NCBI GenBank assembly: GCA_031835245.1 | Contig: JAVKOQ010000120.1 | Location: 1 to 64,000 of the forward strand | Reading direction: 5' to 3' | From: Balamuthia mandrillaris | Lineage: Eukaryota > Discosea > Longamoebia > Balamuthiidae | Length of the DNA: 64,000 nucleotides | Part shown: positions 5,302 to 59,404 of the stretch, piece after piece | Layout of the letters: every line of letters starts with the position of its first letter | Position numbering within the stretch: the stretch's first letter is position 1 | The notes under the pieces: model-generated | What the model saw: only the letters and a program-made list of their open reading frames with translations | What the model was told of the DNA's origin: nothing | Databases searched by the model: none | Made by a program: the position numbers and the translations under genes

Positions 5302-6123
5302 TCTCGACTTGGTGATACTGGAGGGAGACACAGCAAGCAAGTTGGTCAGGGATGTGAAGGAGTTCTTGGACAATCCCAAGTGGTACTTGGAGAGAGGCAT
5401 CCCTTACTGTCGTGGCTATCTGCTCTATGGCTCTCCTGGCTCTGGGTTTGTTGCGCTTTGCTCCTCCTTTTGCTTCCTTTGGCTCTAACAAAGGCAAACA
5501 AAAACAGCAAGAGCAGTTTCATCTACACACTGGCCGGGCATTTGGAATATGACATCTGCATGTTGAACCTCAGCGAGAAAGGGCTGACGGACAATCGACT
5601 GGCTCACCTCCTCAGCGTCGTCCCTCAACGCAGCATCACCCTCCTTGAAGACGTCGACGCTGCTTTCCTTCGTCGCGACCAGCTTCCTTCCTCCTCCTCC
5701 TCCTCTGCTCATCACTATCCCACCACAGTAACTTTCAGCGGCCTTTTGAACACGTTGGATGGCGTTTCGGCCACCGAAGAGCGCATTCTCTTCATGACCA
5801 CCAATCATATCGAGCAGCTGGATCCGGCGTTGATACGTCCCGGCCGTGTGAATGTGAAGCAAGAGTTGGGTCACGCCACTCCTGCGCAAATGAAGAAGAT
5901 GTTTGCCCGGTTCTATCGGATAGGTATTGTAGGAGAAGGAGAAGATGGAGAAGGCAAAGGCGAAGAAGGAAGGAGGATGGCGGAAGAGTTTGAGGCCAAG
6001 TTGAGGGATGAGATGGTAAAGAACGCGGCGGGAGATAAGCATGGCGCAGCTGCAAGGTTTGAACATCTGTATTCTATACAATGCAAGATTGAAAATGGGA
6101 ATGGACAATTAGAGCTCATCTGA
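5302..6123 (+). pseudogene. Truncated BCS1-type mitochondrial AAA ATPase
   Basis: Joining 5302-5445 to 5508 onward (62-bp GT-AG intron) gives the AAA core of BCS1. The order is [29 protein letters not shown], Walker A GSPGSGKSS, Walker B-like LLEDVDAAF and the second region of homology ending [12 protein letters not shown]1 translocates the Rieske protein across the mitochondrial inner membrane. The N-terminal transmembrane/BCS1-specific half is absent: an in-frame stop lies just upstream, unless an intron acceptor at 5300 connects to an exon I cannot find. At the C-terminus the frame runs from about 6060 into the dispersed coiled-coil family repeat, which replaces the normal BCS1 end. It is most likely a fragment left after transposition or rearrangement. 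The domain assignment is firm and the pseudogene status is an inference. Confidence 0.75.
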
Positions 6124-6910
6124 AGCAAAGTATGTTTTTCACATCAGTCCCAAAACAAAAGTAGAAAATACGTTCAAGGGAGCTTCTGGTAGAAGAGGCA
6201 GGCATAAAGAGAATACTTTCAGCTATTATACTTGCTTTTCCACTATGGGCAGCTTTGTTCCTCTCTTCTCGCACCCTTTCTTTGCCTTGAATTAGTTTCA
6301 AATCATCTTCCAAGAGGATTCCTGTGGGGTTTTTCTCCTTCACAGCAATGCATGCAAGGTTGAGGAAGTGGCGCCTTAGGGCCTTATGTTGAGCATTCTG
6401 TACAATGGCAAGCTTCTTCTGAATTGTGGCCAGGACCTCATCATGCTTCAAAATGGTGGCTTGTAAAGCTTCTCTGTCCTCGTCAGCTTTCTTTAATGCC
6501 ATTTTAAAGGTCTCTCTGTCCTCCTCGGCCTTCTTTAATGCCATTTTAAAGGTCTCTCTGTCCTCCTCGGCCTTCCTTCTGTCCTCCACCTCAGGCCCAG
6601 GTCTGGTGGTGGTGTGCTTTTCCTCACCCTTGATGAGGTGTTGGCCTCGCAGCTCTGCTAGTTCAGAAAGCTGGGGCTGCGTCTTATCCTTGGGGTGCAC
6701 GAGGATAACTGGCGTGTTGTTGCAATTGCGTTTGCCGAGGAGGACAGAGAGACCTTTAAAATGGCATTAAAGAAAGCTGACGAGGCCTCAGAAGCAGATT
6801 TGGCAATCCGCCGTTCATCGATTCTTTGTGTTATCGTCTTCTCCATGGTTGATGTTATCACTCCAATGCTGTTTACGCTAGGCCAAACCGTTGCATGGCT
6901 CCTGGACTGA
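6060..6910 (-). pseudogene. Dispersed coiled-coil gene family, copy 1 (rearranged)
   Basis: The minus-strand frame 6116-6700 encodes an EEDRETFKMALKKA-type charged repeat and then a C-terminal part with RRHFLNLACIAV. The same sequence recurs at about 26375-27590. In this copy the first exon (MEKTITQRIDERRIAK, start codon at 6846-6844) is separated from the rest by about 47 bp (6736-6783), which are an inverted copy of the coiled-coil repeat. The roughly 320 bp present in copy 2 are missing. Intact N- and C-terminal parts therefore no longer connect. The longest frame here keeps a C-terminal region that copy 2 has lost by frameshift, so the two copies are broken in different ways. The function is unknown. 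Confidence 0.7.
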
Positions 6911-12101: not shown

Positions 12102-14808
12102 TTAGGGGCGCTGGGATGCATTTCGAGAAGAAGAAAAGTTAGAGGACGACAAAAGGTCAGCAAATGGATCACTTTGGCGTTTGGCCTGCTGTGGTTGCAT
12201 GGAGGGCGGAGAGAGGTGTCTTTGAGAACTGGAGGAGGAAGAAGGGGTAGCCCAGCTAGTTGTTGTAGGATGAGAGTGATGATCATAGCCGTTGAAAGAA
12301 GGATTTTGTGAGTGGTAAAGACCTTGCTGGTAAAGGTCTCCGCCGCTTCGTGAGCGATGCATAGGATCAGAGTGCCAAGCTGATCCTTGCAATGATGAGG
12401 GCGGTGTTAACGGTTGGTGATGATGGGAAGAGGACTCTAGGAGTGAAAAAGATACTGGATAAGCCGAAGCCTGGCCGTAAGAAAGTGGAGAGCTAGTAGT
12501 AGTGGTGGACTTAGCCAAGGAGGCATGTGCAGGAGTGTTGGTAGCAGAAGTTGGGCCTAAGAGGTCGAACAAATCATGGTTAATCGTATTAGAGGTTGGT
12601 GGAGCTGAAGAGGGACGGCTCAAGCTGGTGGCCACCTGAAGGGTGTCCAGAAAGAAACTATCGGCCGTTTGGTTGCTGCTTGGCGGGGTGGGGGAAGAGG
12701 AAAACGGGGACCATTCATTATCAACGAATTGGCTCTGTGAACTGTGTTGATTAGGTGAGTTCCTTGGGGAGGCAGTGACAGCGTGTACGCTACTGCCAAT
12801 TGTTGAAGATGAGTCCGTATTCGAGTGCCAATCCAACATGGAGAATAAGTCTCCACCAACGGCCATACCGCCGACAGTTGCCACATTGCTTTCTTTTTTT
12901 TCAGCTTGGCTGGATGGTGGTGGGCTTCCGCGAGAACGGCTACCCCTACTACCATGGCTACCTGATTTCTTTTGACCACTGCTTGATTGTCGCTTTGAGT
13001 CACTCCTACAGAAGAAATTGTTGGTGTTTTACAGGCGTTCTGGAAAGGAAAACAAACAAACCTGGAGCCATCTCTAGAAGATTTTAGATCGGGTTTTGAT
13101 CGTTTTTGAGCGTGCTTAGGACGTTGTACACTAACACCCAAACGCTTTAGCACTGAGTATATGTCAGGACGCTTATAGGGGTCCTCATCCAGCAAATAAG
13201 CTGTCAAGGATGATGGTCAGCAGGCAAACCACAATTAAGTGAAAACAAAGTGTGCAAATAAAGGTGACAAGAGCTGCGTAGTACTGACATAACTACAAAC
13301 TCGACGTATCCACCAGTATAGCAGCTACAATTGTGCAACATTTTTTCTGCCATACCTCCGACCATAAGTTTTAGGTAAGGCCGTGAAAACCACGAAATAA
13401 AACTTATGTAAAATTGGTATGGACTAATCGGAAAGAGGAGACGAATTGAAAGGAAAAAAAAAGCGATAGAAACGACGACAAAGAAGGAAAAGTTCGTCAC
13501 AAGTCGAAGAAAAAATAAATAGCGTACCGATGAATGCTGTGAGCTTGCTAGAATAAGGACATGGTTCAGGTACCCTATAACTACAGTTCAATATACCCAA
13601 TGCGCCATCAAAAGCGTCAACATAAAAAGCGAGTTTAAACAATAAACAGCCTAGTGCCTATGAAGAAATGGGTCAGATAAGAAATCCTCTTTTCTGGTTG
13701 TGGTGTGTATGTGGATAGGAAAGCTGCATACCCAGATGTCACATTTTTCGTTTATCAACTCTCCTTTGTACAAATCCACCATTTCAGGAGACCGATAGAA
13801 GAGGGTGGTATTTTTTTGAATGTCCTCATCAGCCTCTGCCCTATCCCTTTCGGCCTTGGGAAGGTACGTGCGGGTGGTGGCACTTCCGAAGTCGCCCAAC
13901 TTCAGCATGCCGTTCCGGTGCATCAACACGTTCTCCACCTTTTATCCGTGGCATGTTAGCGCCAACAAGCAGCCACAACAGTTGGAGAAAGGATAAAAAG
14001 AAAAAGGAAAGGAGGACAGAAGGAATGAGAGAAAAGGGAGAGAATCCTGCCTTGAGATCGCGGTGCGCAACGGGAGGGTCCTGGCTGTGAAGGTAATGCA
14101 CAGCCTCGCATACTTTGGTAAAGATGGCAAAAATTTCGTCCTCCCGAAGCTTGGTTTGTATGCGCCGCAGCATCAGATCCAAAAGGCTGCCGTTCTCGCA
14201 GTATTCCGTCACGAGCACGGTCTCCGTGCCAAACCTGTCTCTCTGGATGGTGGAGGAGCCAAACAGACCAATAACGGGCTTATCGGGACCGCCATACTTT
14301 CTCTGTGTTCATTTGTGTTGTTGGTAAGGAGGGATATTGGAATCGTAAGGACAAACACAAAACAAACACGTAAAAGGTAACACTTTTGAATAATACTTTA
14401 CCAGCAGGCTAATCTCGTTGTTCACAATTTTAAGGTGCTCTTGGTCTTGCACCATGATGCGTTTCAGCGCAAAGGGCTGTCCCGTAGATATCTCCTGCAC
14501 CAAAAACACAAAGGCGAACCCCCCTTTTTGTTTGTTTTCAAATAGGGTCAAGGTCGTTTTCCCACTTTCAAAAAATATAATCTTTCTAGTTTTGCAAACG
14601 TACCTTCGGCAAGCCTTTTCACAACCCGGTAGGAACGTCCTTCCACCGCAAAAATGGTGCCGGCCTCGATGTTGGAGCCACCGCCTCCTCCACCAAAAGA
14701 AGGACCACCGCCGCCTCCTCCCCCTGCGCCGCCGCCAGGGGAGCCCCCCAGGCTCAAGTTTTCCAGCCCGCCACGCAGGCTGTTCAGACCGGAAGCTAGT
14801 TTGTGCAT
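12102..14808 (-). CDS. Numb-associated (AAK1/GAK/Ark1-type) serine/threonine kinase
   Basis: Seven exons read on the minus strand: 14808-14604, 14523-14402, 14296-14051, 13938-13732, 13657-13528, 13200-13062 and 13005-12102. They give 650 residues. A Gly-rich N-terminus precedes the kinase domain (about 58-335). Its key motifs are the loop LAEGGFAFVFLV, the lysine in FALKRI, HRDLKVENVL, LGDFGSAT and RSPEMVDLY in place of APE. The loop and catalytic signature are those of the NAK family, which phosphorylates clathrin adaptor subunits and controls endocytosis and actin patches. The Ser/Gln/Pro-rich tail (350-650) ends near DPFADLL. DPF is the classic AP2-appendage binding motif, which supports a clathrin role. 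The intron within HRDLK|VENVL has a GC donor (gcagga...aaag). A second copy of this gene's 5' end lies near 58.9-59.0 kb. Confidence 0.93.
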
Positions 14809-15339
14809 TGCGGCGGAGAAGAAGCAGCAGGGGAAAAAAGGAAGATGGACAGGAAGAGAGCAGCCAGCCCAAAGGAAAGGAAAGGAAAGGCAAGGAAAGG
14901 CAAGGAAGGAAAGGAAGAGAGACCAAAAAAAAATATCCCCAGAAGAAATTTTTTCTTTTTCTTTTTCTACTTTTTTTTTGCGATGGATTAATAAGGAAAG
15001 CCTTTCTTTTTTGTCGACATATATGAGGGGCACTTCTTTAAAGAAATTCGGAAGGCAACCGAGGGAGAACTGGTAGAAACACGTCGCTTCAACAACGAAT
15101 GAGAACCTCTGCCCTTCATGCTGCGGGGGGGGGGGGCCCCCCCCCCCCCTTGACCAAGCTCCTACTCGCGTTGCCACTGCTCCTGTCATCCATCTTGGAG
15201 GACCGCTCCTATATAATTTTCTAAATAAAGAGGAACACGTTTTAATTAACGCCCTCTCCTCACCTTTCTCTTGCGGCAGCTCAAACGAAAGCCAAGTTCA
15301 TTTGCAAGTCAGCCATTTGTAAGCATTAATAAAGGAACC
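14809..15339. promoter_or_regulatory. Divergent promoter region between NAK kinase and HSP20
   Basis: The two genes start head to head 531 bp apart. The interval holds a TTTTTTGTCGACA motif (GTCGAC at 15013-15018) and a perfect G12C12 palindrome at 15125-15148. A TATA-like tatataat at 15210-15217 lies about 123 bp before the HSP20 ATG. I saw no array of properly phased GAA/TTC heat-shock boxes. Confidence 0.5.
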
Positions 15340-15954
15340 ATGTGGCCTCGCACTCTTCGCAACCGCCACCAACCAGCTGCAACTGCAGCTGTGCGCTCAT
15401 GGAAAACCGCAGGAGGGTCATGGAGGTCATTGGCCAGCACCTCATTCCAAGAGGAATGGAACGTGCCCGTGGAGCAAATCGAAGAGGCCACCAAGGCGGG
15501 GGAACCCTCTCACCACGCCGTCTTCAGCCGCTGGCTCATGCGGCAGCCCTTCGGCTACGGAAGCCTTTTCAGGCCCTCCCATCCTTACCTCCAGCAGCCC
15601 ATCACTGAGACTCATGAGTCCGAGCAAGAGCTCCTCTTCAGGACCTCCTTTCGTGGGCAGCGGATACCCTCCGAGGCAGTCCAAGTGAGCGTGCAAGGGC
15701 AAAACCTGACCATCAGCGTTCAACCGCCCCTGGAAAAGGTAGAAGAACAGGCGGCTGCTGCTTCAGCTGGTGTCGCTGAAGACGTCAAGCAACCCACCAA
15801 AGACACGAGGGGGTTTACTCACAAGTTCCAACTGCCGCCAGAGTGCGATCCCCAAAAGGCGAGAGCCATGCTGCACGAGGGGGGCCTCATTGTGAGCGTC
15901 CCCAAGGCCACCGAAGACCAGTTGCCCCCTGACAAGACGCATGGCGAGCCCTGA
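15340..15954 (+). CDS. Small heat-shock protein (alpha-crystallin/HSP20 family), probably mitochondrial
   Basis: This is a single exon of 204 residues. The C-terminal half is an alpha-crystallin domain: EQELLFRTSFRG, then VQVSVQGQNLTISVQ, a charged Ala-rich insert, GFTHKFQLPPECD and finally ARAMLHEGGLIVSVPK, the characteristic end of the fold. Small HSPs hold unfolding proteins in a refoldable state. The N-terminus (MWPRTLRNRHQP, then Arg/Ser/Ala-rich) looks like a mitochondrial presequence, which is an inference. The ATG at 15340 is the first in the frame; the open frame extends upstream but with no earlier ATG. Its 3' end and 3' flank are duplicated, in direct and inverted form, at 58.7-59.4 kb. 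Confidence 0.88.
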   Translation: MWPRTLRNRHQPAATAAVRSWKTAGGSWRSLASTSFQEEWNVPVEQIEEATKAGEPSHHAVFSRWLMRQPFGYGSLFRPSHPYLQQPITETHESEQELLFRTSFRGQRIPSEAVQVSVQGQNLTISVQPPLEKVEEQAAAASAGVAEDVKQPTKDTRGFTHKFQLPPECDPQKARAMLHEGGLIVSVPKATEDQLPPDKTHGEP

Positions 15955-16243
15955 ACCTCCTCACCCACTCTCACCATCAGTGTTTATAACTGCTCCAGCC
16001 CATCACAATTGTCACCTCCTTCAGGGCTAGACAAAACCAGCCCTTGCTTGTTGCCCGCTACCGCCCGCTACCGCCCCACCAGCGCCGCCCTTCAGAGGCA
16101 CTTTCGCCTTTTCCCTTTGATGTCTACGCACACAAAAAAGGCGCCAATTTTTTTTTTTGGTGGCGCCTCTTCCGGCACAATAAAACACATGCGCACACTC
16201 ATCACCGAAATCACAAAAAAAAAAAAAAAACGTAGCGAACCGG

Positions 16244-19200
16244 ATGGAGGAGGTGCCGCCGCAGCAGATGGAGCAGCAGGAGCAGCAGCAGGAGGGTGGT
16301 GGCACAAGCGAACACGCATCGTTGCAGCCAAGAACAAAGAAAAGGAGAGTAAGCTCCGCTACTGCTGCGGCTGGCCAACCGTCCCGCAACTGGAGCAGTT
16401 TGCCGATGCCCAGTTCCACGGACTGGCAGAAGCAATCGTTGCCTCAACTGTTAGACGTCCTTTTTCCGGGCGTACTTCCGCTTGCAAAGAACACCTATGG
16501 TGGGAAGCTGCAAAAAGAGCTGTTGGCTCGGCTGGTTGAAGCGGGTACGTCCACCAACAACACAGCCAACTGACAACGTATGCTGACCACTTGAGGGTGA
16601 ACATGCATGTTCCTTCTGCCGAAACTAACAGTTAGGCAAGAGCAAGCTGGGCCAAGTGAAGCACCAAACACAGCTGGGGCAGAGAAGCCGGGTCGGATGT
16701 TCGGCTTCAAATGTGAGGCAATGGTTTGGTTCAAACAAATGAAGACCTACGCAGTGTTCGGCAAGAGAGAGGTACCACTGTCACAACTGTTGTGCCGCCT
16801 CCATTGCCCTGACTTTGTTCCTGGAAAGACCATTGTGCGGCCCATGACAGAGGAGGAGAAGCAGGCTCACCATAAAATATTCCCTCGACCACAAACCTCT
16901 CAGTCACCACGAGGAAGAACGGCAGTTGCAGGGGGAGGAGGAGGAGGAGGAGAAAAAAAAGGGAAAGAAAAAGAAAGCGAACAAGGACAAGGTCAAGGGG
17001 AGGAACAAGGGCAATCACAAAGAGCGCATGGACGTCTTGGAAGCGACAAGAGCGGGGCAGATAGGGAGGCAATAGATCTGGCAGAAGCGGCCTACCGTCT
17101 GTTCAACTCCCAACCCCATGAAATGGCGGAGAAGGTGGATGTGATGACTTGTAATGAGGCGTTGGTGACCCTCAACACTTCTTCCAAACGCATCGCCTTC
17201 ATTGTGTTTCATGCCGATCAGTGGGGTGGGTCTGGGGACGAGCCGTATGAAGAACTGCCAGAAGGTATGTCATGCTCTCCCTTCGGGCGACTGTGTGATT
17301 GGTATTGCTAATGTCTTCTTGCCACAAGTTTTCTATCATAAAAAGCTGGAGGCATACATGCAAAAATTGAGGTACGCATCCTGTTGAGCTCATGCTTCTT
17401 TGTTCTTACTTGTTCTCTGCTCTCCCTTTGCTTGCTCGTTGCGTGCATTCCCCCTCACAATTGTGATGATACAGCAGCCAACCACTCTCCCCCCGACTCC
17501 ACAGACTGAAATGGCTTGCAACTCATGGGATAATGCAACGCAAAAACCAATTTGAGGCCACACTGCCACCTGTTGTTGAGAAGGAGCGTGTTCGTTATGT
17601 GGCCTCTTGGTTTCGGCGGAGTGGCATGGCAGAACGTTATGGAAACCAGCACGTTTTTATGGCAGTGAAGCAGCTGCTGGACTCGGGGAAGGTCATTGGT
17701 GCCATGGACAACGACCAAGCAATGTTGAAGAACGTTTGGGATTGGATGTTGTCAGATACCCTCATCGCTCTGTGTGGATGCACGTTTGACTATCGTTATG
17801 AAGCTGAGTGGGCAGCATACGTGTGGTACCGCGTGTTCGACTGGAGACACTGTGCAGCCTTTCGGTTCGCCCCAGACCTGCCCTTCCACCTCCATCCATC
17901 CATCTATGATGGACTACCCATGCAAAGTGAGGCATCGTCAGGGAAGAGTAGGAGAGACCGAAGGCCAGATGTGCTGCTCTCCATTACCCTCAACCAAGAC
18001 AGTGGTCATCGGTACGTCCTCCCAAGCTTCTCCCACCTCCCCCCACTAATCCAAGGCAGCAGTGGCCATACCTTTCCATTTCTCTTTGTGGAGATATCTG
18101 CGGAGGCCATTGCCGACGAGCAAACCGACCACAAAGATCACAAGAAGCTGCTGGTATGCATGCGGCTAGCCCTGGAGAAGCAAATCCTCGCGTTACTGCA
18201 GAGCCTACACGAGGAGGAACAATTCATCGAGGCGTTGCAGGAGCTGCGTGTCTTCGGGGCGCTTACTGCTGCATCAAAGCTGTTTCTCTTTGCCATGCGG
18301 CCATTGTTGGACCTCGATCACCGCTCCGTGGTGTATGAGTGGCATGAACGGGCAGGAGCTTTGGACATTCTCCACGTGAGGGATGTGATTGCTGCATTCG
18401 AATGCTTCGAAAGGATGAGTCGAGCAGCCCACCACATGGAAAACATTTGGAACAACGTTGGAACACGCCGGGGCGGACCTCCAGTTTTGCAGTTCTACCT
18501 GCCTGTTCTGTGTGACATACCAGCTGCCCGACCTAACCATGCAGCTGTCACTCCAACCAAGAATCCACCAAAAGACAGAAAGCGCTCGCACACATCCGAT
18601 AGTGAATCAACCGGACACGAACACCGGCAGAAGAAACAACATTCAGGCAAAGGCAAAGACGACAACAAAGGCAACGGCCCAGGGGATGCGGCAGAGAAGA
18701 ACGGGCGAGGAGGTGAAGGAGAGGTGCAAGATGCTGGCTTTTTTCCTTCATCGGATTCCGCAGAGCTGCAACCGGAAGTGTTAGCATCGTTGCAGACACA
18801 CAGCCTGCTGCCGACAGAGTTTTTGCCTGCAATCCGTGGCTGGATTGGGAAGGTGCGGGCAATTGTGGCCTTGTTGTGCAGCGAAGCTGCGAACACATGG
18901 ATTGGGCTGACTATCACACTCCAACCAAACCAACCAGGGAGGAAACACATGGCTGAGCAAAGGTCCAGAAGGCAAGGTGGTCATCCTCAAATGCAGGAAG
19001 AGGCCCAACCAGGAACTGGATCTGCTAGGCAGGGTCACACCCCATCCCAACCTGCCCACCCTTCACTTCTCCGCAGAACGCCAACTGCCAGATGGCAGAT
19101 ACGCCTCTGTCATGGTGCAGAACCGGCTGATGAGCATGCAGGAAGCAGCGACGGGGCCAGCCAGCGGGGCGGTGTGTGCCTTGGCATGTGCGGTGGACAT

Positions 19201-19702
19201 CATGCAAGCCATGCTGCACCTCCACAGCCATGGCATCTGCCACAGGGACATCAAACCAAGAAACATCATGTGGGACCCAACCACCCGCCATTGGGTCTTG
19301 TTGGACTTGGATTTGGCCTCCGTCTGGCTGATCCCCCGCAAGAAGGAAACGGAAGAGGAAGAACAGATGGAGGGAAGCAGGAAGAGCAAGCGGGCTTCCC
19401 CTCCACCAAGATTGCTGACCAGCAGATACGTGGGAACGCATGGCTTCATGGCTCCTGAAGTTTATGCCTGTGATGGCTTGGAGGAATATGACGCCTTCCT
19501 GGCGGACACGTGGAGTTTCGCAAGGAGCTTGCAGGCGGTGTTCATGGAGCGCACAGCAGTGTTGCCCCACAGCAGCATGCCAGCATTGAACAAGCTGCTG
19601 GAGGAGGCCACCCATCCCCAACCTCACCGCAGACCCTCCCTCCACACCGCCTTCCCCAATCTGCAAGAACTTCTCCGCAATTTTCAGGCTAGCTCGACAT
19701 GA
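16244..19702 (+). CDS. REase-fold nuclease domain fused to protein kinase (Crinkler-like effector architecture)
   Basis: Five exons (16244-16544, 16632-17264, 17329-17371, 17505-18852, 18938-19702) join in frame to 1029 residues. Residues 1-100 are Gln/Ser-rich, followed by a region with GKREVPLSQLLCRLHCPDF, a Gly/Lys/Gln-rich low-complexity linker and a domain of about 300 residues. That domain contains RRPDVLLSI, then FLFVEIS, then DHKKLLVCMRLALEKQI and later VVYEWHERAG. Asp followed by Glu-x-x after a hydrophobic strand and a helix with HKKL is the layout of restriction-endonuclease-fold domains in Crinkler-type proteins. After a charged linker comes a kinase (about 770-1029): IGKGGNTWLSKG, VVILK, CHRDIKPRN, DLDLAS in place of DFG, and GTHGFMAPEV. 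REase plus kinase fusions are known among CRN-like effectors. Whether this protein is secreted, nuclear or active is not visible. ExS replaces the usual ExK, so nuclease activity is uncertain. Confidence 0.75.
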
Positions 19703-19787
19703 AAGAGAGGGGAGAAAGAGGGGAGGTGAGAGAGAACTTCTCCGCAATTTTCAGGCTAGCTCGACATGAAAGAGAGGGGAGAGAGAA
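19667..19787 (+). repeat. 67-bp tandem duplication across the stop codon of the kinase fusion gene
   Basis: Sequence from 19667 (gaacttctccgcaattttca...) recurs from 19734 with a 67-bp period. It carries the last coding residues, the TGA and the adjoining purine-rich tract. The second copy lies entirely in the 3' flank. The rest of 19788-20116 shows no gene. Confidence 0.85.
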
Positions 19788-20116: not shown

Positions 20117-23989
<3,873 letters not shown>

Positions 23990-58735: not shown

Positions 58736-59404
58736 GAAGACCAGTTGCCCCCTGACAAGACGCACGACGAGCCCTGAACCTCCTCGGTGGCCTTGGGGAC
58801 GCTCACAATGAGGCCCCCCCTCGTGCAGCATGGAGAGCCTTGGCGGCAGGTGAGGCTCCGAAAAAAAAAAAAGAAGAAAAATATTTCTTTTGTATTTTTT
58901 TTGGGGTCTCTTCCTTGCCTTTCCTTTCCTTTGGGCTAGCTGCTCTCTTCCTGTCCATCTTCCTTTTTCCCCTTGCTGCTTCATCTGCTCCGCCACAATG
59001 CACAAACTAGCTTCCGGTCTGAACACCCTCATCTCTCTTCTCTTCCCTCTTGCGGGTTTGAAAAACTGCCCATTACATTCCTTCCTTCACCTCGGACCAG
59101 CCAGGGGAGCATGTGCGTTCCACTTGGAGGCCGCTCCAGAAAGGGTTGGAGAAACCTGTTCATCAACAAGAGCTGCACCACAGGGCACACTGGAGAATCA
59201 TTGCTAGATGAGGTTGTTGCGAGTAAAAGCAGGTATCGTGAGTCCTTCTTCTCTTTATTTTGGGTCAGTCAGGACACTTTCAATGGTGAGCAGGTTTTGT
59301 CTGGCAGTGAAGGAGGTGACAATTGTGATGGGCTGGAGCAGTTATGAACACTGATGGTGAGAGGGGGTGAGGAGGTTCAGGGCTCGCCATGCATCTTGTC
59401 AGGG
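58736..59404. repeat. Mosaic of direct and inverted copies of the 14.8-16.0 kb locus
   Basis: 58736-58785 is a direct copy of the HSP20 3' end (15913-15962, two mismatches). 58786-58833 is an inverted copy of the neighbouring 15867-15912. About 58893-59025 copies the 5' flank and first codons of the NAK kinase (14783-14945, inverted relative to the window). About 59292-59404 is an inverted copy of HSP20 3' flank 15930-16040. The pieces between (59026-59290) match nothing I recognise. No intact gene lies in 58562-59451. Confidence 0.85.

What the first reader, a model, noticed from the sequence alone, without database searches (positions are those of the whole stretch)
16244..19702. REase-fold plus kinase fusion resembling Crinkler-type effectors
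Hand-splicing gives one 1029-residue protein with a nuclease-like region (RPDVLL...FVEIS...DHKKLL) followed by a kinase whose DFG is DLD. REase-kinase fusions are described among CRN-like proteins of fungi, oomycetes and some protists and are thought to act on host or competitor nuclei. Here it sits between housekeeping genes, with intact splice sites and frames, so it looks functional. The ExS in place of ExK and DLD in place of DFG raise the question of which half is still catalytic.
Basis: partly seen in the sequence, partly recalled or inferred. Interest (0 to 1): 0.8.

Follow-up and report, generated by a model that had tools for sequence, protein, structure and literature searches.

The report
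Multi-copy amoeba kinase with nuclease-like domain
This is a real, intact gene of the amoeba Balamuthia mandrillaris, one of about a dozen scattered and mostly damaged copies, that encodes a probably nuclear protein joining an orphan, possibly nuclease-derived domain to a protein kinase; it resembles Crinkler proteins in layout but was not shown to be one.

Summary
The gene is real. The genome is Balamuthia mandrillaris. At least 12 loci plus one relic exist, in two unrelated contexts and a diverged clade; 9 of 12 are damaged or truncated. The C-terminal protein kinase is confirmed (Pfam Pkinase E 3.3e-14) with its catalytic residues present. The middle region has no significant match in Pfam, PHROGs, PADLOC, NCBIfam or PDB sequences and no relatives found outside Balamuthia; structure prediction failed (pLDDT 32). 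Its restriction-endonuclease (REase) fold is only suggested, by motif order and by conservation of FPFLFVEIS and QTDHKDHKKLL. No Crinkler header and no hydrophobic N-terminus were found; an NLS-like motif was. Best reading: an intracellular nuclear REase-like/kinase protein, kinase probably active, nuclease activity doubtful; not a demonstrated secreted effector.

The parts
16244..16544 (+). exon 1: Gln/Glu-rich start, NLS-like basic motif TKKRRV (16334-16351), start of the N-terminal region
   Evidence: indels of the five close copies are multiples of 3
16545..16631 (+). intron 1 (other acceptors, such as 16640, also keep the frame)
16632..17264 (+). exon 2: N-terminal region of unknown fold; the window lacks 72 bp that the close copies have here
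17265..17328 (+). intron 2
17329..17371 (+). exon 3
17372..17504 (+). intron 3
17505..18011 (+). exon 4: first half of the orphan, REase-like middle domain, with RPD at 17962-17970
18063..18852 (+). exon 5: second half of the middle domain, VEIS 18088-18099, DHKDHK 18127-18144, then a charged linker
18853..18937 (+). intron (fifth in order), its removal restores the kinase glycine-rich loop
18938..19702 (+). exon 6: protein kinase domain, HRD 19241-19249, DLD 19304-19312, stop 19700-19702

Best explanation
An intact six-exon Balamuthia gene for a protein of about 1012 residues. SHOWN: it splices on paper into one open frame whose exons, but not introns, keep their length modulo three in close copies; nonsynonymous change is lower than synonymous change in both halves; it belongs to a dispersed multi-copy family; and it ends in a protein kinase domain with the classical catalytic residues. 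INFERRED: the protein stays in the cell and enters the nucleus (TKKRRV-type motif, no hydrophobic N-terminus); the middle domain is a diverged PD-(D/E)xK-type domain (RPD, then E-x-S, then an invariant DHKDHK stretch) that binds, and perhaps no longer cuts, nucleic acid; the kinase is the working enzyme and controls this protein or its nuclear partners by phosphorylation, as has been proposed for REase-kinase Crinkler proteins.
For: Splice model and open frame; exon/intron contrast of indels in the close copies; dN/dS 0.31 (middle) and 0.35 (kinase) against the C472 copy; Pkinase 53.4 bits against a cut-off of 31.7; alignment of the kinase through HRD-K-N-D with a solved kinase. In the middle domain the two longest identical stretches between the two clades are FPFLFVEISAEA (12) and QTDHKDHKKLL (11); a longest run of 12 or more is reached in 191 of 5000 column shuffles, a second run of 11 or more in 6 of 5000 (a test chosen after seeing the alignment). 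The basic motif is TKKRRV in the window and L029-L033 and KRRKV in L035. Removing the hidden intron shortens the distance from the Asp of RPD to the Glu of VEIS from 41 to 24 residues.
Against: No REase-family match and no relatives of the middle domain found outside Balamuthia; the ExK lysine is Ser in 5 of 5 database proteins and in the window; the structure model is unusable. The five proteins amount to two clades only. Nuclear entry, expression and activity are untested; I saw no transcript data. N-terminal dN/dS is weaker, 0.36-0.67 against six copies.
Confidence: 0.45

Rival explanations
1. The middle domain is not an REase relative; it is a Balamuthia-specific regulatory or substrate-docking domain, and the motif order is coincidence. 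The protein is then a lineage-specific kinase with an orphan front half.
For: For window:17506-18543, 0 families in Pfam (E up to 5), PADLOC and NCBIfam (up to 10) and one 37-position PHROG of unknown function at E 0.2; weak non-REase matches in the paralogues P0003 and P0004, all below cut-off or at E 0.04 and worse; 0 PDB sequences up to E 10 with a 6-row profile; 5 of 5 database hits at E<=10 are Balamuthia; E-x-S instead of E-x-K.
Against: The order RPD - VEIS - DHKDHK, with conservation concentrated in the last two, fits the superfamily layout as I recall it; pairing of an REase with a kinase is a described architecture (PMC5289972 section 11).
Confidence: 0.3
2. Fully active nuclease-kinase of the Crinkler (CR) type in which DHKDHK supplies the missing catalytic lysine; used inside the cell against invading DNA, or against prey or competitor nuclei.
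For: REase-kinase pairs make about one sixth of CR C-termini in the account of Zhang 2016 given by PMC5289972; TDHKDHK follows the ExS in 5 of 5 proteins; NLS-like motif.
Against: ExS, no header found, no hydrophobic N-terminus, no nuclease homology by sequence.
Confidence: 0.12
3. A selfish or formerly mobile gene: the unit spreads within the genome by its own cutting activity or by hitch-hiking, and copies then decay.
For: 12 loci, 9 of them damaged or truncated; by BLAST the second-context copies share with the window block only about 16200-19726 and a short fragment; in three of those four copies (L029, L032, L033) the gene's 3' end is followed directly by sequence homologous to window 14777-14887, a permuted order; trypanosome RHS proteins are grouped with Crinklers (PMC5289972).
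Against: No terminal inverted repeats or target-site duplications noticed by eye at the junctions (no systematic search was run); within each context the copies share many kilobases of flanks, that is segmental duplication; the one second-context flank without the gene, C37, also lacks most of the next gene.
Confidence: 0.1
4. A secreted Crinkler effector that acts on host or prey nuclei.
For: Layout similar to Crinklers with REase plus kinase; NLS-like motif; copy-number expansion.
Against: No header found and no LFLAK in the translation; no hydrophobic N-terminus (best mean hydropathy over 19 residues starting in the first 40: -0.29); no swapping of this N-terminus onto other proteins: its hits fall on family loci, on one short relic (C33) and on two weak hits, C285 (31%, E 0.007) and C81 (35%, E 0.04).
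Confidence: 0.03

Closest known systems
CR (Crinkler-RHS-type) proteins with REase plus protein kinase C-termini, e.g. CRN8 of Phytophthora infestans
   Same: Putative nuclease-like region with an RD-type kinase; a nuclear localisation signal; an expanded gene family (PMC5289972 sections 5 and 11; PMC3426532 passages).
   Different: No Ubl/LFLAK header found, no hydrophobic N-terminus, no detectable sequence relation of the middle domain to any family searched, E-x-S instead of E-x-K, DLD; a different lineage.
FunK1 / fungal protein kinases (Pfam PF17667)
   Same: Kinase part scores weakly: E 1.9e-4, 20.8 bits against a cut-off of 24.1; the diverged paralogue P0004 scores 24.0; four other family loci pass the cut-off in a genome search (C472, C26, C187, C648).
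   Different: The window protein is below the cut-off, and an unrelated-looking Balamuthia kinase (C24, 33.7 bits) scores higher, so the match is not specific.
Canonical Ser/Thr protein kinases (Pfam PF00069)
   Same: Glycine loop, beta-3 Lys, HRD, catalytic Asn, Mg-binding Asp, APE.
   Different: DLD instead of DFG; 46 residues between DLD and APE with a charged stretch; HQD in P0004.
Kinases of anti-phage systems (MAD6, MkoA, PD-T4-6 models of PADLOC)
   Same: Kinase half of P0001 matches MAD6 at E 3.5e-14 and MkoA at 9.2e-12.
   Different: Only the shared kinase fold; the middle domain gives no PADLOC match and MAD6 in NCBIfam is far below its cut-off, 26.9 against 460.
PD-(D/E)xK / REase superfamily
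   Same: Motif order RPD ... VEIS ... DHKDHK, conserved between the two clades.
   Different: Third residue of the ExK motif is Ser; no profile match.

Membership tests
Eukaryotic-type protein kinase (PF00069) | Score over the curated cut-off | tested here: met
   53.4 bits against 31.7 for the window protein; also met by P0001, P0002, P0004, not by P0003 (13.1) or P0005 (no match). Kdo kinase PF06293 is also just over its cut-off, 22.9 against 21.3
Eukaryotic-type protein kinase (PF00069) | Catalytic Lys, HRD Asp, Asn and Mg-binding Asp present | tested here: met
   K776, D862, N867, D881 in the window protein. Among the database proteins P0003 lacks HRD in its gene model, P0004 has HQD, P0005 has no kinase
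Eukaryotic-type protein kinase (PF00069) | Kinase activity | not testable with these tools
   needs a bench assay
FunK1 (PF17667) | Score over the curated cut-off | tested here: not met
   20.8 bits against 24.1 for the window protein; 23.3 for its kinase exon in the genome search
REase / PD-(D/E)xK superfamily | Profile match of the middle region to a superfamily model | tested here: not met
   No REase model among the matches of window:17506-18543, P0001 or P0004 (for PADLOC 25 of 34 and 25 of 33 rows of the two full proteins were shown); 0 PDB chains
REase / PD-(D/E)xK superfamily | Asp, then Glu-x-Lys in adjacent strands | tested here: inconclusive
   RPD and VExS present, Lys replaced by Ser; five Lys/His in DHKDHKK follow within 16 residues of that Ser
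REase / PD-(D/E)xK superfamily | alpha/beta/alpha core fold | tested here: inconclusive
   AlphaFold2 model of P0001 mean pLDDT 32, pTM 0.21; second job not accepted
Crinkler / CR effectors | N-terminal header (Ubl with LxLFLAK, or another shared header) | tested here: not met
   no PF20147 match in the protein; none in the genome, but the control did not ring; no LFLAK. Helical headers other than Ubl could not be tested
Crinkler / CR effectors | C-terminus with REase coupled to kinase | tested here: inconclusive
   kinase yes, REase unproven
Crinkler / CR effectors | Nuclear localisation | not testable with these tools
   NLS-like motif in window, L029-L033 and L035; localisation untested
Crinkler / CR effectors | Secretion or translocation | not testable with these tools
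   no hydrophobic N-terminal stretch by hydropathy

The most novel reading that the evidence does not exclude
A Balamuthia-specific family of nuclear nuclease-kinase genes that spreads within its own genome: the unit moved between two unrelated neighbourhoods, its kinase exon looks homogenised between old and young copies (dS 0.42 against 1.12 in the middle domain of the same pair), and an REase domain with a relocated lysine, switched by the attached kinase, drives or once drove the copying. It would be an intermediate between a selfish nuclease gene and a CR-type toxin in Amoebozoa.
Probability: 0.07. Interest if true: 0.75.

Novelty: new variant of a known kind. Interest (0 to 1): 0.42.

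Why it matters
If the middle domain is an REase relative, this would be a REase-kinase fusion in an amoebozoan that is free-living and can infect people, with a degenerate active site that makes it possible to ask whether such proteins work mainly as kinases with a nucleic-acid-binding front. Full-text searches of the held library for Balamuthia with Crinkler gave 0 papers and for Acanthamoeba with Crinkler 2, seen as listings only. If it is not, it is an orphan kinase family of Balamuthia, still useful as an example of a hidden in-frame intron that gene models of the same family treat inconsistently.

Tried and rejected
Tried without result: homologues of the middle domain among 5.8 billion proteins (only 5 Balamuthia proteins among 3059 scored candidates at E<=10; 5 among 7991, where the candidates were capped; the search reaches only proteins sharing exact 5-residue words); kinase-only search (59 proteins at E<=1, four of them Balamuthia; the other 55 are generic kinases where a name or domain is given, best E 1.9e-5); viral contigs (34 pattern matches, 0 confirmed) and prokaryote contigs (56 pattern matches, 0 confirmed), each with two short peptide patterns only; phage records (0); profile libraries for the middle domain; PDB sequences. 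The piece window:17506-18543 used in those scans still contains the 17 residues of the hidden intron; the spliced P0001 and P0004 were scanned too, with no REase match. Structure: one AlphaFold2 job on 5 aligned proteins, pLDDT 32, so no fold search was made with it. Rejected: FunK1 membership; a secreted effector; a simple transposon. My recollection that E-x-S followed by a D-x-x-K-L helix occurs in Crinkler-like domains of mucoromycete fungi comes from no call and was not used as evidence. The SAP-like look of residues about 65-100 is an impression; Pfam gave nothing for residues 1-195.

Papers: PMC5289972 passages plus sections 5 and 11; PMC6131194, PMC10471605 and PMC3426532 passages only; Zhang et al. 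2016 is not held and its content is taken from PMC5289972; all others seen as search listings only.

Full report
WHAT IS THERE. The window is contig C119:1-64000 of an unnamed 64.8-Mb genome. Its closest proteins in the database are all Balamuthia mandrillaris, and four of the five lie on contigs whose lengths match contigs of this genome (162700, 59996, 68735, 34378). PMC10471605 (passages) describes a hybrid assembly of about 65 Mb of strain ITSON01, annotated with Funannotate and RNA-seq reads; that this is the same assembly is my inference.

SPLICING. In an alignment with ten other copies, the removal of 18853-18937 is consistent between copies and rebuilds the kinase glycine loop. The alignment also shows a fifth intron: 18012-18062 begins with GTACGT, carries ACTAAT and ends in GCAG. 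Between these alignment columns the window and nine copies have 51, 51, 51, 45, 51, 52, 65, 68, 68 and 68 bp; L039 does not cover it. The exons on both sides have no indel in the five close copies. Three of five NCBI models remove it, two keep it. The corrected protein has 1012 residues, or 1013 with the acceptor at 18059.

CODING STATUS. In the five close copies L029-L033, exons 3, 4 and 5 carry no indel; exon 6 carries only multiples of three except +1 in L032 and -5 in L033; the introns vary. Reading ungapped codons in the window's frame, which ignores frameshifts, no stop is seen before codon 1011 in the window, L029, L030, L031, L032, L033, L035 or L039 (truncated); L034, L037 and L038 have earlier stops. 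Exon indels that are not multiples of three: L029 exon 2; L030 exon 2 (one base); L032 exons 2 and 6; L033 exons 2 and 6; L034; L035 exons 1, 2 and 4, in an uncertain alignment; L037; L038; L039. C313 (L031) has none against the window. Counting C472's second place as a kinase fragment, 9 of 12 loci are damaged or truncated, window and C313 are intact, and the main C472 copy is uncertain. Pairwise dN/dS of the window against six copies is 0.27-0.54 in the middle region, 0.29-0.56 in the kinase and 0.36-0.67 in exons 1-2; the pair L031-L032 gives 1.35 in the kinase at dS 0.03, too small to judge. No significance test was made.

THE FAMILY. Own-genome searches, whose counts are lower bounds, give 12 loci: the block of the window is shared by C648 and C313 over many kilobases; C119:93-96 kb, C274, C26 and C23 (truncated) lie in a second context; C187, C472 (two places), C289 and C84 form a diverged clade, about 48-55% identical over the main middle-domain matches of C187 and C472. 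A 102-bp relic of exon 1 lies on C33. By BLAST, the two contexts share only about 16200-19726 plus a fragment homologous to window 14777-14887 that follows the gene directly in three of the four second-context copies; some shorter similarity continues upstream by eye. The permuted order points to rearrangement more than to a classical transposon. C37 has the second-context upstream flank without the gene, but lacks most of the downstream gene too.

KINASE. PF00069 E 3.3e-14; Kdo PF06293 just over its cut-off; APH, FunK1 and PK_Tyr_Ser-Thr below theirs. The best solved relative by sequence is 9av6 (E 1.2e-8 for the kinase exon), aligned through HRDxKPxNIMW to the D of DLD. The kinase half of P0001 also matches models of anti-phage kinases such as MAD6 (E 3.5e-14). 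The classical catalytic residues are present, so activity is predicted, not shown. For comparison, CRN8 of Phytophthora infestans autophosphorylates; its D470N kinase-inactive form still causes cell death, the R469A;D470A double mutant does not (PMC3426532, passages).

MIDDLE DOMAIN. No significant match in any library, no relatives found beyond Balamuthia. Between P0001 and P0004 (51.7% identical here) the two longest identical runs are FPFLFVEISAEA and QTDHKDHKKLL; a longest run of 12 or more is reached in 191 of 5000 shuffles, a second run of 11 or more in 6 of 5000; the test was chosen after seeing the alignment. RPD, VEIS and TDHKDHK occur in 5 of 5 proteins, which represent two clades. 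These motifs are evidently constrained, and their order is that of a PD-(D/E)xK domain as I recall it, but this is not proof. AlphaFold2 on five sequences failed.

N-TERMINUS. Gln/Glu-rich start, basic motif TKKRRV (KRRKV in L035), no hydrophobic stretch at the start, no Pfam match, no Crinkler header (the control did not ring).

VERDICT. A real gene, a corrected splice model, a confirmed kinase domain, an unproven REase half and a failed Crinkler-header test. It works, most likely, as an intracellular nuclear kinase with an old nuclease-like, nucleic-acid-binding front.

Noticed in passing
L033 (G000:C26:208000-217900), 6005-6400, minus: IS607-like serine recombinase (Pfam Resolvase E 3.8e-7 plus MerR_1 E 4.4e-5; the IS607 label is recalled) just downstream of the C26 copy of the gene, in a stretch that L029 lacks.
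   Followed up: partly
window 58740-59400: Looks like a scrambled mosaic of pieces of the 14777-16000 region: 58851-59057 matches by search, the HSP20-like 3' pieces around it were seen by eye.
   Followed up: partly
window 18938-19702 against L035: Synonymous divergence of the kinase (0.42) is much lower than that of the middle exons (1.12) between the same two copies, suggesting gene conversion.
   Followed up: partly
window 20502-20685: Long TTG triplet-repeat tract in or beside the next gene.
   Followed up: no
L029, about 5980-6390 (exon 1 of the C119:93-96 kb copy): Large expansion (294 bp, a multiple of three) of a GAGCAG-type repeat in the Glu/Gln-rich N-terminus; the other close copies L030-L033 differ there by multiples of three.
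   Followed up: partly
G000:C24:66004-66282: An ordinary-looking Balamuthia kinase scores best with the FunK1 model PF17667 (33.7 bits), which shows how unspecific that model is here.
   Followed up: partly
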